Shown here: one piece after another, positions 57,335 through 63,687 of the stretch
Position numbering within the stretch: position 1 is the first letter of the stretch
How the letters are laid out: every line of letters begins with the position of its first letter
From: Phlebopus portentosus
Lineage: Eukaryota > Basidiomycota > Agaricomycetes > Boletales > Boletinellaceae
Direction: 5' to 3'
DNA length: 64,000 nt
NCBI GenBank assembly: GCA_037892935.1
Contig: JAYXKI010000007.1
Coordinates: forward strand, 1,922,001-1,986,000
Made by a program: the position numbers and the translations under genes
The notes under the pieces: generated by a model
Database searches by the model: none
Seen by the model: only the letters and a program-made list of their open reading frames with translations
What the model was told of the DNA's origin: nothing

Positions 57335-58890
57335 TCAGCGGCGGAATGAGGGAACATTTGGAAAAAAACTATACTCGCCATCAGCACCAACACGAGGGAA
57401 TGGCAACGGGCATGCTTGCTCAATGTCAGCGTAGTTCTTCCCAGCGGGCAGTCTAGTGGAAACGACATAATCAGCTAGTACAATATGGAAGTCGAGAAAC
57501 TAGCGCAACTCACGTCGCATGTTTCTTTTCCAAAGGGACATTCGCCTCTGGGACAACATCCGAGCAATCAACAAGGTTGTTTGGATTATGACCAATTACT
57601 GCAAGTTTCGACACGGCCGCTTTAAACTTGACCACCATCTTATCCTGGTTATCGATCAAACTTTGCCATTCACATGCCGTACGCTGTTGTTTCCACAATG
57701 ATCAGAAGGATACCTCGAAGCCACACAAGGGCAGAATCAACGCACGTTATCCCGCGATAGCACAAAATCAGATTGAAGACGCATCTCTCCTGCCTCTGGA
57801 AGCGGCGAGTCGATCTCTGCACCGGGAGTACTGCTGTTTACGCCAAAGGACAGGTCAACCCCCTTGGGCATAACCTCAAGGAAGAATCTAAGAGAAAAGG
57901 TTAGTTTATCTCATTGAACACGAACGATTTAGAAAGTTATAAAACAGCATTAAAAATAGAAAGAAAACAAAAAGCGCAAAAATGCCACATAAAAACGCCA
58001 CAAAATGCCTCACTGAGAGTCGAACGAAAATTGGGTAGAATCGAACGGAGGGCTGTGCCCGGGTACCAAAGTGTCACTATCATAATTGTTATTAAAACTT
58101 GAATTCCCGTCATGCTCTGAAAACTCACCTATGGAATGAGAGGCTTTCGCGAGATTAGATATTCGCCATTCCGCGATCCCGAATACTGTTGGTCTCATAC
58201 CTAGTAGATGTACTACTTCTGCTGGTGAGAAGCCTCCTCCATCGGCCATACGTTCAAGGATGGTCGACGCATCGTTTTGTGGAAGAGGAACGGTACCGTC
58301 TTCTGCAGGAAATGTCGCATTCGGACGGCCTGTAAGGAACTGCAGGCGGGTGGCACCAGGACAGTTGGAGCTACGGATGTATCAGTACCAGTTTCATTGC
58401 GAATGGAGCGAAACACTTACAACCCAACGGCACTTGCGAACTGAATGAGGTCTCCAGCAGTCACGTTGTGACGCGTAAGGAATGGAGCCAGCTCCTCGAC
58501 AAACTCATCGATACCGGCATTTGCGGCATACTTAGTCCCAATATCGCGGAAGATGACCATGGAACCATCCGCTCCAGTTCCTTTGAACTTGCCGGACCTA
58601 GAGAACCCGATCGCGTCGTGAAACGCGAGACGAACGGAGACCTGGGCGTCCATTCCGCACTCTTTATCAAAGAGGTTGTTCTGTAGATTATCTCGTAGCA
58701 AAAAGAAAGGACAGCACTACAAGCTAGTAAACGTTGCATCAGCCAAACCATTGACCAGCATTAACCGCAAGAGACGAACCGCTTCATCGCTGGCAAAGTT
58801 ACCATCCGGGCAGCGAATGTTCTTGATATTTACAGCACCAGCGATAGTAGCGAATGTGATGGAGGAGACTGAGAGCTTGAAGAACATCAT
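57335..58890 (-). CDS. Secreted class II-type haem peroxidase lacking the Mn site
   Basis: Seven exons fit in phase: 58890-58780, 58716-58421, 58370-58201, 58143-58014, 57887-57746, 57683-57514 and 57452-57335. They give 378 residues. A signal peptide (MMFFKLSVSSITFATIAGA) is followed by the catalytic distal site VRLAFHDAIGFS (Arg66, His70), the calcium-type region GADGSMVIF, the segment ITAGD-like NVTAGDLIQFASAVGFSNCP, and the proximal haem ligand His195 in HLLASHSIG. The C-terminal part carries RTACEWQSLIDNQDKM and LVDCSDVVP. Where manganese peroxidases have two Glu before the distal Arg, this protein has Met59 and Val63, so it should not oxidise Mn(II) at that site. It fits the generic or low-redox peroxidase group. 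After ASHSIG there is a long polar, Asn-rich loop. Confidence 0.9.
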
Positions 58891-60159: not shown

Positions 60160-63100
60160 ATGTCCGGCATGTCGGGTCAAGCTGACGGCCACTATGAGTC
60201 CATAGAAGATCGAGCTCACTCTTCATGGAAGCGATTCGAACAATCCGGAAACCGAGGAGACCTTGACTTAACTATTAAGTTAGAACAACATATATTGGAT
60301 AACTGTCCTCATGGGCATCCAAACCGCTGGAGCTCACTGCGCGACCTTTCAATCTCGCTCCATTCACGCCATGATGGTTGGCGGGAAAAGACGGATCTGG
60401 ATAAAGCGATCTCACTTCAACGAGATGCCTTGGACCTTCGTCCCGAGGACCCCAAATCATTGAGCAACCTCGCGAATTCTCTTTTGACTCGTTTCGAAGA
60501 ATACGGAATGGAAAGGGATCTCGACGATTCAATACAACTGCATCGTGATCTCTTAGCTCAACAGACCGATGATGACCCTTCGCGTACCAGCTCGATGAAC
60601 GACCTCGCGAATTCGCTTCTGACCCGGTTCGAGAAATACGGAAATAACGATGATCTCAATGAGTCGATTGCGTTACACCGTGCTGCATTGGATCTTCGCC
60701 TTGAAGATCATCCTTTCCGTGCCTCGTCATTGAGTAATCTTTCAAATTGCTTGAGAACTCGCTTTCAAAGAACAGGAAGTACGAAAGATTTGGACGAATC
60801 CATCACAATGAACCGTGAAGCCCTCGATCTTCGATCTGAGGGCCATCCAGATCGTTCAATATCACTGAACAACACTTCAAATTCCGTGCTTCTTCGATTT
60901 AACTACTTCGGAAAAGTCGATGATCTTGACGAGGCGATTGTGTTGTATCGGGCCTCGCTAGCCCTTCGTCATGAAGGACATCCATTGCGCCCATCTTCTC
61001 TCAGCAATCTTGCAAATTCTCTGAGAATTCGTTTTGAAGAAAGTGGAAGAGCTGCAGACTTAGACGAATCGATCGAACTGGCCCGCGCTGCCCTAGCACT
61101 TCGCCCGGACGGACACCACGATAGACTTGCTTCTCTGGTAAACTTGTCAGGCGCTGTTCTCACCCGCTTTAGGCGAGGAGGGAGGAGAGAGGACCTAGAC
61201 GAGTCGATTGCACTAAACCGTGCCGCCATGGTGCTCCAGCCAGACAGCCACCCTGGGCGTTTCATGACAGCAAACAATCTCGCCAGTTCTCTGTTGACTC
61301 GTTTTGATCAAGACGGTAGGCAGGACGACCTTGATGAGTCGATATCTCTGCATCGTGCCTCCTTAACCCATCTCTCCGATGAACACCCGGATCGTTCTAT
61401 CTTGGTGAATAACCTTGCAAATTCCCTATCCGCGCGCTTTCAACACGAAGGAAGACCAGAGGACCTGGACGAATCAATCGCACTGAGTCGTATCGCTCTT
61501 TCTCTTCGTCCCGGGAGTCACCCTCATCGTCCTGCATCATTGAATAATCTTGCGAGTTCTCTGCTGACTCGTTTTGAGCAAGATGGAAAGGTCGATGATC
61601 TTGACGAGTCAATTGCATTGCAACGGGACGGCCTCACTCTTCAGCCTAAGTTGACTCCGGAGCGATCTAAGCCGATGAATAATCTTGCAAGCTCTCTTAT
61701 ATCTCGCTTTCAACAGACGGGAGTTGCCAAAGATCTAGAAGAATCGATTGCTCTTGACCGTGCTGCGTTGTCTTTGCTCCCAGAGAACCATCCTGACCGA
61801 ACCATGTCAATGATCAATCTCGCGAATTCTCTAGCAGTTCGCTTCAAGGACGCAAACAAGGCCGAGGACCTTGATGAATCCATCTCATTGCTTCATACCA
61901 GTCTGGAACTTTGTCCGGATGGCCATCCTCGTCGATCTATTGCACTGGTCTGCCTCGCAAACTCTCTTTATCTTCGTTCAAAAAGTGGAGAAAATGGAGA
62001 AGATTTGGAGAACTCTACTCACGCTCTAGAAAATGCATCCAATCACACGCCGTCTAGTTTATTTACGCGCTTAAAGGCAGCACAGCGATGGTTGGTCCTG
62101 GCGCGAATGTATGATCATCGCACCACACTTAACGCCTACAGGTCCGCTACCTCTCTCCTTCAACACATCTTATCAATCAGACCCAATCTATCCTCGCAAC
62201 ACATTCTCTTACGTAGCAGTCATCGTTATCAGCCACTGACATTAGACGCGGCCTCTTTCGCCATAAACAAAGGCAATTTCACTGAAGCTATCGAGCTTCT
62301 TGAACAGGGGAGAGCACTGCTTTGGTCTCAGTTACATGGTATCAGGATGCCCCTTGATCAACTTTCGGAAAGAGACAAAGCGCTCGCTGATAGATTTCGG
62401 GATTGTAGCCGTCGCCTTGAAGCATTCATGACATCGATGGAGCCGCACATACCTCATACGAACATCAATGAAAGCTCTACGATGCCAGACAAACCTTCGG
62501 TCGACGAGGTACTGTCACGCATCCGACGGCTTTTGGAGGAACAAGAAGCAATAGTTGCTAGAATTCGACGCTTGCCGGGATTTGAAAACTTTCTAGGGGT
62601 CGTGCCTTTCGAGGTATTGCAGGAAGCAGCCTCAGAGGGACCAATCATCGTGATAAACCATTGCGAGTTCCGATCCGATGCACTCATTGTTCTTTCTCGG
62701 AAAGAGTCGCCATGCGTTTGCGTTCCGCTAGATAAAGGCTGGTATTTGGAAGCCTTCGATCTGTGTAATGAGCTCCTACGCGTCCGCCGAGATCGCGGTG
62801 TCTACTCTGCCAAGTATGACGAGTCGCTCCGACGAGTTATGAAAGTGGTGTGGGACAGGGTTGTTTCCAATGTTGTTGGTAAACTCAAAGAACTCGGTAT
62901 CAATGAGGGGCGTATTTGGTGGTGCCTAACTTCAGTATTACCCGCGCTTCCTTTCCACGCAGCGGGACCTTACGAGAGTCCAGGGGGCAGCATGAAATAC
63001 CTGATGGACGACTATATCTCATCATACACACCATCTCTAAAGTCACTCATAAACGCTCGTACCGGCGCCCAATGTGGAAGTCACAGGCTCCTCTTTGTCG

Positions 63101-63687
63101 GTGACACAAAACTGCCCGCAGCCAGCAAGGAGAGAGATATCATCCGAAGGTATAAAAACATCGATAAATTTCTCCTCGATGATCGTGCAACTCCAGACTC
63201 TGTGCTAAAATGGCTTCAGAAGGTGCAGTGGGTGCATTTTGCCTGCCATGGGATTCTGAAGCGGGAACCCTTCGCTTCTTCGTTGAAACTTCGTGGAGGA
63301 AGACTGACTCTTCTCGATATTGCTCGGCTTCATCTTCCAAATGCGGAGTTTGCCTTCCTTTCGGCTTGTCATACTGCGGAACAAGGCCCCACCTTTGCGC
63401 TCAATGAATCACTTCATTTGGCAGCAGCAATCCAATTTTGCGGGTTCCGAAGTGCCGTCGGTACGATGTGGCAGCTACTTGATCGAGACGGTCCTTTCCT
63501 TGCTGGAGTGGTTTATGCACAAATGATGGCTCAACTGGGAGATGACGAATTCAGATTCAAGAAGGCGGCGGCGGCGGTTCGCGAAGCTGCGTTGAGGCTG
63601 AGAGATCGGAAAGACGAAGGTCCAGATGGATACAAAACGGACATGATGGTAGAGAGGTGGGTTAACCTGGTGCACATAGGCGCTTGA
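60160..63687 (+). CDS. TPR-CHAT protein (caspase-like protease domain)
   Basis: One uninterrupted exon encodes 1175 residues from ATG 60160 (MSGMSGQADGHYES). Residues about 25-640 are tandem helical repeats of exactly 45 residues, about twelve full units plus partial ones at the ends. A typical unit reads NLANSLLTRFEQ, then DLDESIALHRAAL, then HPDR. This is the TPR pattern of mushroom CHAT proteins. After a helical linker, the C-terminal CHAT domain has the strand and His motif WVHFACHG (His1030) and the Cys motif AFLSACHTAE (Cys1070), followed by GFRSAVGTMWQL. CHAT is a clan CD cysteine peptidase related to caspases and separase. TPRs probably sense a partner. Known TPR-CHAT relatives act in regulated proteolysis and, in bacteria, in defence. 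The role and substrate here are unknown. The catalytic pair is complete. Confidence 0.95.
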   Translation: MSGMSGQADGHYESIEDRAHSSWKRFEQSGNRGDLDLTIKLEQHILDNCPHGHPNRWSSLRDLSISLHSRHDGWREKTDLDKAISLQRDALDLRPEDPKSLSNLANSLLTRFEEYGMERDLDDSIQLHRDLLAQQTDDDPSRTSSMNDLANSLLTRFEKYGNNDDLNESIALHRAALDLRLEDHPFRASSLSNLSNCLRTRFQRTGSTKDLDESITMNREALDLRSEGHPDRSISLNNTSNSVLLRFNYFGKVDDLDEAIVLYRASLALRHEGHPLRPSSLSNLANSLRIRFEESGRAADLDESIELARAALALRPDGHHDRLASLVNLSGAVLTRFRRGGRREDLDESIALNRAAMVLQPDSHPGRFMTANNLASSLLTRFDQDGRQDDLDESISLHRASLTHLSDEHPDRSILVNNLANSLSARFQHEGRPEDLDESIALSRIALSLRPGSHPHRPASLNNLASSLLTRFEQDGKVDDLDESIALQRDGLTLQPKLTPERSKPMNNLASSLISRFQQTGVAKDLEESIALDRAALSLLPENHPDRTMSMINLANSLAVRFKDANKAEDLDESISLLHTSLELCPDGHPRRSIALVCLANSLYLRSKSGENGEDLENSTHALENASNHTPSSLFTRLKAAQRWLVLARMYDHRTTLNAYRSATSLLQHILSIRPNLSSQHILLRSSHRYQPLTLDAASFAINKGNFTEAIELLEQGRALLWSQLHGIRMPLDQLSERDKALADRFRDCSRRLEAFMTSMEPHIPHTNINESSTMPDKPSVDEVLSRIRRLLEEQEAIVARIRRLPGFENFLGVVPFEVLQEAASEGPIIVINHCEFRSDALIVLSRKESPCVCVPLDKGWYLEAFDLCNELLRVRRDRGVYSAKYDESLRRVMKVVWDRVVSNVVGKLKELGINEGRIWWCLTSVLPALPFHAAGPYESPGGSMKYLMDDYISSYTPSLKSLINARTGAQCGSHRLLFVGDTKLPAASKERDIIRRYKNIDKFLLDDRATPDSVLKWLQKVQWVHFACHGILKREPFASSLKLRGGRLTLLDIARLHLPNAEFAFLSACHTAEQGPTFALNESLHLAAAIQFCGFRSAVGTMWQLLDRDGPFLAGVVYAQMMAQLGDDEFRFKKAAAAVREAALRLRDRKDEGPDGYKTDMMVERWVNLVHIGA

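What the first reader, a model, noticed from the sequence alone, without database searches (positions are those of the whole stretch)
60160..63687. Intronless 1175-residue TPR-CHAT protease with very regular 45-residue repeats
Seen: about twelve TPR-like units of exactly 45 residues lead into a CHAT domain with an intact His1030/Cys1070 pair. In an intron-rich genome, a 3.5-kb gene without introns is unusual. Known: TPR-CHAT is the architecture of the protease partner in type III-E CRISPR (Craspase), and CHAT proteins are caspase relatives. Inference: a candidate cell-death or allorecognition effector.
Basis: partly seen in the sequence, partly recalled or inferred. Interest (0 to 1): 0.75.

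Follow-up and report, generated by a model that had tools for sequence, protein, structure and literature searches.

The report
Mushroom repeat-armed caspase-like protease gene
An intact gene in a wood-decay mushroom encodes a caspase-like protein cutter joined to a long repeat arm; it is one member of a large, fast-changing gene family that looks like an internal alarm system, although what it senses and what it cuts are unknown.

Summary
60160-63687 (+) is one 1175-codon frame: TPR-like units in 45-residue register, a helical linker, and a CHAT domain with His1030 and Cys1070. Its C-terminal half models nearest to Csx29 of Craspase, then separase, but it misses the Csx29 cutoff (38 bits of 300) and has no NOD domain. 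S. sanghuang ACEPAF_1660 is near-identical with equal repeat number.

The repeats here are diverged (mean identity 49%).

The family, 44 CHAT loci here, evolves like a receptor repertoire: genus-level expansions, whole-unit array indels in relatives, broken copies, and two paralogue pairs with conversion-like homogenised CHAT. No close homologue is listed in S. weigelae, S. vaninii or S. baumii, although a neighbouring gene is kept in each.

Best reading: an autoinhibited receptor-protease of fungal defence or cell death. Ligand and substrate are unknown.

The parts
60160..63687 (+). Intronless TPR-CHAT gene, 1175 codons plus stop; the S. sanghuang counterpart is annotated from Met4 (60169)
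60220..60489 (+). Weaker N-terminal TPR-like units (residues 21-110)
   Evidence: helices 32-47, 56-74, 77-93 in the model
60490..61974 (+). Eleven TPR-like units in exact 45-residue register (residues 111-605), two helices each, mean pairwise aa identity 49%, maximum 67%
61975..62835 (+). Last helical repeats, helical linker and small beta element before CHAT (residues 606-892); together with CHAT it aligns to the C-terminal part of Csx29
62836..63681 (+). CHAT caspase-like protease domain (residues 893-1174)
   Evidence: PF12770 E 1.7e-32; fold
63247..63249 (+). Predicted catalytic His1030, just after a core strand
   Evidence: 129 of 134 aligned sequences; model
63367..63369 (+). Predicted catalytic Cys1070, just after a core strand in the domain model (at the end of a helix in the full-length model)
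   Evidence: 131 of 134 aligned sequences; models

Best explanation
It is a TPR-CHAT cysteine protease: a superhelical TPR arm joined through a helical linker to a caspase/separase-like CHAT domain. It most likely works as an autoinhibited intracellular receptor-protease. The arm binds a protein or peptide ligand (foreign, or a self protein that has changed or differs between individuals); binding shifts the linker and lets His1030 and Cys1070 form an active site; the enzyme then cuts a substrate encoded elsewhere in the genome and starts a defence or cell-death response. Shown here by computation: the architecture, the predicted fold, the conserved dyad, an intact reading frame in two genomes, and a large family in which the repeat arm changes faster than the protease end. 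Inferred: the ligand, the switch (by analogy with Craspase and separase), the substrate and the death outcome.
Against: No activity, expression or phenotype data. The window gene shows no recent array change: same repeat number and 16 differences spread over the protein between two genomes. It takes no part in the detected conversion, which rests on two pairs, the second only just past the Bonferroni limit. In Phellopilus CHAT is not more alike than the linker on average, and pairs with P0085 go the other way (linker 0.89-0.93, CHAT 0.76-0.79). No PF04598 gasdermin match in the genome and, one local cluster apart, no recurring neighbour gene in the stretches read. A faster-changing arm is also what weaker constraint would give: dN/dS is far below 1 in all eight pairs (0.16-0.28 in arrays, 0.08-0.13 in CHAT; dS is saturated in the two pairs with the window gene). 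Many of the 96 pairs are related Phellopilus paralogues, so they are not independent.
Confidence: 0.55

Rival explanations
1. It is an allorecognition determinant in the strict sense: a presence/absence (idiomorph-like) locus whose protein triggers death when hyphae of different individuals fuse.
For: A CHAT gene is one idiomorph of A. fumigatus hetB. No listed homologue above 63% in S. weigelae or S. baumii and 42% in S. vaninii, although the downstream neighbour is kept at 83% and 88% in S. weigelae and S. vaninii and TUP1 at 90% in S. baumii. The gene is a deep lineage within the genus in the tree, so loss in the others is more likely than recent gain (inference).
Against: Two S. sanghuang-like genomes carry near-identical copies with no sign of divergent alleles. 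Absence rests on protein lists, not on reading the other species' loci. Most members of fungal receptor families do not control allorecognition (PMC12881547, passages).
Confidence: 0.15
2. It directly activates a gasdermin-like pore former, as in the Podospora CHAT/gasdermin pair.
For: About 19% of fungal gasdermins lie within 10 kb of a CHAT protease gene (PMC10197012, passages); a TPR-bearing CHAT protease activates one in Podospora.
Against: PF04598 finds nothing in the genome, though that search found only one sub-cutoff hit in its 14 control genomes and may miss fungal gasdermins. No neighbour family recurs in the stretches read except one local cluster. Fungal gasdermins are clearly more abundant in Ascomycota (PMC10197012, passages).
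Confidence: 0.1
3. It has a housekeeping or cell-cycle role, like separase or the animal TPR-CHAT protein TTC28/TPRBK.
For: Separases are the next structures after Csx29 in the fold comparison; human TTC28/TPRBK has the same architecture and is reported to act in cytokinesis (PMC12314368, passages).
Against: 44 loci, dense clusters, broken copies and no close homologue listed in three related species do not fit an essential single-copy role.
Confidence: 0.08
4. The family is largely a neutrally turning-over, decaying repertoire and this copy does little.
For: Of 21 own copies read, 7 have frame changes or breaks and 3 short frames; 9 of 14 own sequences have no counterpart above about 78% among the 120 listed proteins.
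Against: This copy is intact over 1175 codons in two genomes; dN/dS in CHAT is 0.08-0.13 in the eight pairs tested; the dyad is almost invariant.
Confidence: 0.12

Closest known systems
Csx29 / TPR-CHAT of type III-E CRISPR (Craspase)
   Different: 38 bits against a cutoff of 300 for the Csx29 model; long regular 45-residue array; fungal gene; a CRISPR partner was not searched for
Fungal CHAT cell-death proteases: A. fumigatus hetB product and the Podospora gasdermin-activating TPR-CHAT
   Same: Fungal CHAT proteins linked to incompatibility or gasdermin activation
   Different: Those are ascomycete genes; no gasdermin partner found here; sequences were not compared directly
Expanded coral TPR-CHAT proteins and human TTC28/TPRBK
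   Same: Long N-terminal TPR array, one C-terminal CHAT, tandem expansion with variable array length in corals (PMC12314368, passages)
   Different: Animal genes; not compared by sequence here
Fungal NLRs with ANK/TPR/WD repeats
   Same: Expanded, unstable families with repeat arms; highly conserved TPR units mostly 42 aa in the NLR survey (PMC4986451, passages)
   Different: No NACHT or NB-ARC in this protein; its repeats are not highly conserved
Separase
   Different: No separase family among the Pfam hits; one of 44 CHAT loci, whereas separase is normally a single gene (recalled)

Membership tests
CHAT peptidases (Pfam PF12770) | Profile match over the curated cutoff | tested here: met
   113.5 bits against 24, positions 3-288 of 289
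CHAT peptidases (Pfam PF12770) | Histidine and cysteine of the catalytic pair | tested here: met
   His1030 and Cys1070, in 129 and 131 of 134 aligned sequences
CHAT peptidases (Pfam PF12770) | Proteolytic activity | not testable with these tools
   needs biochemistry
Csx29 (type III-E CRISPR) | NCBIfam NF041237 over its cutoff | tested here: not met
   38 bits against 300
Csx29 (type III-E CRISPR) | Cas7-11/gRAMP partner | not tested
   no search for a CRISPR partner was made
Fungal NLR | NACHT or NB-ARC domain | tested here: not met
   12 Pfam families listed at E up to 1, none a NOD domain
Highly conserved repeat class of fungal receptors (over 85% identity over at least 100 aa) | High internal repeat conservation | tested here: not met
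   mean 49%, maximum 67% among 11 units
Highly conserved repeat class of fungal receptors (over 85% identity over at least 100 aa) | Repeat-number polymorphism between strains | tested here: inconclusive
   one comparison only: equal number in P0001
Gasdermin-activating fungal protease pair | Gasdermin gene nearby | tested here: inconclusive
   no PF04598 match in the genome (the search also found almost nothing in its controls), no recurring neighbour except one local cluster
Heterokaryon-incompatibility (het) genes | Allelic difference triggers death on fusion; balanced alleles | not testable with these tools
   needs crosses, pairings or population data
Separase | Separase (peptidase C50) profile match | tested here: not met
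   not among the 12 Pfam families listed at E up to 1; profile name recalled

The most novel reading that the evidence does not exclude
Mushroom-forming fungi keep a NOD-less receptor repertoire parallel to NLRs: TPR-CHAT proteins in which sensor arm and effector are fused in one mostly intronless gene. Ectopic gene conversion keeps CHAT effectors alike across some paralogues while the arms diverge by whole-unit gain and loss, and old lineages such as the window gene persist as presence/absence variants among related fungi.
Probability: 0.3. Interest if true: 0.7.

Novelty: new member of a known kind. Interest (0 to 1): 0.45.

Why it matters
Somatic incompatibility is described as poorly understood in basidiomycetes (PMC8229728, start of abstract). 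A family of 44 loci in one genome, pairing a changeable repeat arm with a caspase-like protease that is homogenised in places, is a concrete, testable candidate for part of that missing layer, and would give a basidiomycete counterpart to bacterial TPR-CHAT defence. The single gene is ordinary within its family; the family pattern is the interesting part.

Tried and rejected
Rejected: membership of Csx29 and of the NLRs. Rejected: intronlessness as a special feature of this gene, since 11 of 21 own copies run in one frame through array and CHAT. Two of those 11 (L013, L024) have counterparts whose first 90 and 45 residues lie upstream in another frame, so a short 5' intron or frame change there is possible. 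An intron reading of the frame changes in L011, L014, L020 and L026 was looked at: the two frames abut or overlap, which leaves no room for one. Assembly errors cannot be excluded. Rejected for this gene: recent repeat homogenisation and recent CHAT conversion (0 of 12 window pairs pass Bonferroni; the two lowest are p 0.023 and 0.039).

Led nowhere: gasdermin search by PF04598; PADLOC (no hit); recurring neighbour genes (recurring ORFs lie inside the CHAT genes or close to their ends, except a cerato-platanin gene in the two C4 stretches; introns break genes into pieces, so the test is not sensitive). Literature: 'CHAT domain' with 'Agaricomycetes' gave 0 papers, with 'mushroom' and 'genome' 1 paper, on a cyanobacterium, with 'Basidiomycota' 2 papers. 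The listings (10 or 20 shown of 22 to 117,171) showed no title on basidiomycete TPR-CHAT genes; most were not opened. The library lacks most subscription papers, and the primary paper on fungal gasdermin cleavage was not held.

Results against a general conversion claim: in Phellopilus the CHAT and linker means are 0.817 and 0.809 over 171 pairs; the claim rests on two own-genome pairs.

Full report
Observation. The frame 60160-63687 (+) is open for 1175 codons. Between residues 66 and 605 identity at lag 45 is 0.475, against at most 0.141 at any lag from 20 to 100 in 1000 shuffles. Eleven units, residues 111-605, are in exact register, with weaker units before them. Pfam gives CHAT at 893-1174 (E 1.7e-32) and TPR_10/TPR_12 in the array. 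In an alignment of 134 sequences (14 own, chosen because their CHAT end is in one frame, and the 120 listed), His1030 is kept in 129 and Cys1070 in 131; none of the exceptions is an own sequence.

Source. The nearest named protein is S. sanghuang ACEPAF_1660, 1156 of 1172 residues identical with no gap. Approximate translations of two neighbours are 99% (TUP1, upstream) and 94% (ACEPAF_1661, downstream) identical to S. sanghuang. So the window comes from a Sanghuangporus close to or within S. sanghuang (inference). It maps to contig C7 of a 38.4 Mb assembly.

The family. The genome has 48 CHAT matches (some partial), 44 loci after merging within 1.5 kb; 14 lie within 271 kb on C9 and 7 within 113 kb on C7, while 2000 random placements never put more than 7 in 275 kb. 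The window gene is apart from both clusters. I read 20 of the 40 stretches I asked for, mostly around the best matches. They and the window hold 21 CHAT copies, small fragments aside: 11 run in one frame through array and CHAT; L012, L025 and L028 have shorter frames; L011, L014, L015, L020, L026, a second copy in L013 and a first copy in L023 show frame changes or breaks. One broken copy, L012, has an unbroken 98-99% identical counterpart in S. sanghuang, so breakage is either polymorphic or an assembly error. Two of the 11 (L013, L024) have counterparts whose first residues lie upstream in another frame. Intronlessness is thus common in the family and is no evidence that this gene is special.

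Evolution of the arm. The 11 units in the window gene are 49% identical on average and 67% at most, below the 85% used to define highly conserved repeats in fungal NLRs (PMC4986451, passages). In the same test, 16 of 106 family proteins with at least four placed units have at least one unit pair at 85% or more, and two Phellopilus proteins have 37 and 20 such pairs. The 45-residue register is shared by most Sanghuangporus and Fomitiporia rows tabulated; Lactarius-type rows place only 0-2 units. Among 96 pairs with at least 75% C-terminal identity over at least 480 residues and at least 8 repeats each (all others dropped), the N-terminal part is less conserved in 92; 60 pairs have internal gaps of 15 aa or more, and 45 of the 111 gaps are multiples of 45 within one residue. 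Many of these pairs are related Phellopilus paralogues. Between the window gene and P0001 the 16 differences fall 1 in the N-terminus, 6 in the repeats, 5 in the linker and 4 in CHAT: no excess in the arm.

Gene conversion. In the neighbouring pair L023/L027, dS is 1.18 in the array, 0.62 in the linker and 0.061 in CHAT. In 100-base steps DNA identity is 96-100% from about 100 bases before the CHAT start to near the stop, 53-84% before that, and, after a 92% step that holds the stop, 33-86%. In L021/L022, 0.43 Mb apart, CHAT dS is 0.34 against 1.15 in the linker, with no similarity after the stop. Fourfold-degenerate sites confirm both, the second narrowly (p 2.1e-7 and 4.4e-4; Bonferroni limit 6.4e-4). 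They are 2 of 78 pairs among 13 own sequences (L028 left out), and the averages over all pairs barely differ (0.415 linker, 0.447 CHAT), so it is not a general codon effect. The array dS may be inflated by misaligned units; the linker comparison is free of that. At protein level CHAT is more alike than the linker on average in own (0.720 and 0.565, 91 pairs) and Fomitiporia sequences (0.695 and 0.597, 435 pairs), but not in Phellopilus (0.817 and 0.809, 171 pairs), where P0085 pairs go the other way. The window gene shows no such tract.

Turnover. The tree of a chosen 88 of the 134 C-terminal regions (quick search, SH-aLRT only; conversion may distort it) puts all 11 Phellopilus rows in one clade and 26 of 27 Fomitiporia rows in another; 44 rows (own, S. 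sanghuang, S. weigelae, S. baumii, environmental) form one group (99). The window gene plus P0001 is a deep lineage in it with a stem of 0.39 and no close partner. Five of 14 own sequences have a counterpart at about 94% or more among the 120 listed proteins; nine have none above about 78%. The list is clustered at 90%, limited to the best 120, and annotation may miss genes. Two of the five counterparts (P0006, P0026) bear the name S. baumii, so some species names may be off. At the window's locus, the downstream neighbour is kept in S. vaninii (88%) and S. weigelae (83%), and TUP1 in S. baumii (90%) and S. weigelae (73%). The best CHAT homologues are 63% in S. weigelae and S. baumii and 42% in S. 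vaninii. This suggests loss or presence/absence variation, but I could not read those loci.

Partners. Neighbours of paralogues scanned with Pfam are varied (GH79, BAG, C2, AMP-binding, NAD nucleotidase, cerato-platanin, GNAT, NST1), with no family recurring outside one local cluster. PF04598 gasdermin has no match, but that search showed little power in its controls. If the family kills cells, the substrate is probably unlinked (inference).

Function. Fungal precedents make an immune or death role the best reading: hetB in A. fumigatus has a CHAT idiomorph (PMC11138114, passages), and a TPR-bearing CHAT protease activates a gasdermin in Podospora (PMC12881547, passages). Corals show a TPR-CHAT expansion with variable arms (PMC12314368, passages). 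What the window gene senses and cuts remains unknown.

Verdict. It is a new member of a known kind. I found no description of the basidiomycete family in the searches, which cover an open-licence library only and were seen mostly as listings.

Noticed in passing
L023 2018-6352 and 8751-11942 of the joined stretch L023+L027 (C9:1320094-1324428 and 1326827-1330018): Neighbouring TPR-CHAT paralogues with CHAT nearly identical (dS 0.061) but diverged linker and array: bounded gene-conversion-like tract.
   Followed up: yes
L021 and L022 (C9 about 1.36 and 1.80 Mb): Second pair, 0.43 Mb apart, with CHAT homogenised and no 3' flank similarity.
   Followed up: yes
P0085 against P0089, P0096 and P0099 (Phellopilus): Mosaic in the opposite direction: linker 89-93% alike, CHAT 76-79%; recombination or a gene-model effect.
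   Followed up: no
P0090, P0083 (Phellopilus), P0007 (S. weigelae): Relatives with highly conserved internal repeats (37, 20 and 13 unit pairs at 85% or more), the pattern reported for fungal allorecognition receptors.
   Followed up: partly
L012 about 5216: TPR-CHAT copy with a frame change where a 98-99% identical S. sanghuang protein (P0008) runs through: strain difference or assembly error.
   Followed up: partly
C9:1086746-1357559: Cluster of 14 CHAT loci in 271 kb, the densest in the genome by the matches.
   Followed up: partly
window 58417-58701 (-): Exon with a marginal heme-peroxidase match (PF00141, 27.7 bits, cutoff 27), upstream of the TPR-CHAT gene.
   Followed up: partly
L009 848-1177 and 2847-3116 (-): Two similar small, possibly secreted cysteine-containing ORFs downstream of the gene, hydrophobin-like by eye; no Pfam match for the one scanned.
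   Followed up: partly
L009 8253-9764 (-): Copia-like reverse transcriptase/RNase H ORFs, about 8 kb downstream (recognised by eye).
   Followed up: no
L024 679-1104, L026 382-876 and 7022-7546 (-): Three similar ORFs near two TPR-CHAT genes on C4; the one scanned is a cerato-platanin.
   Followed up: partly
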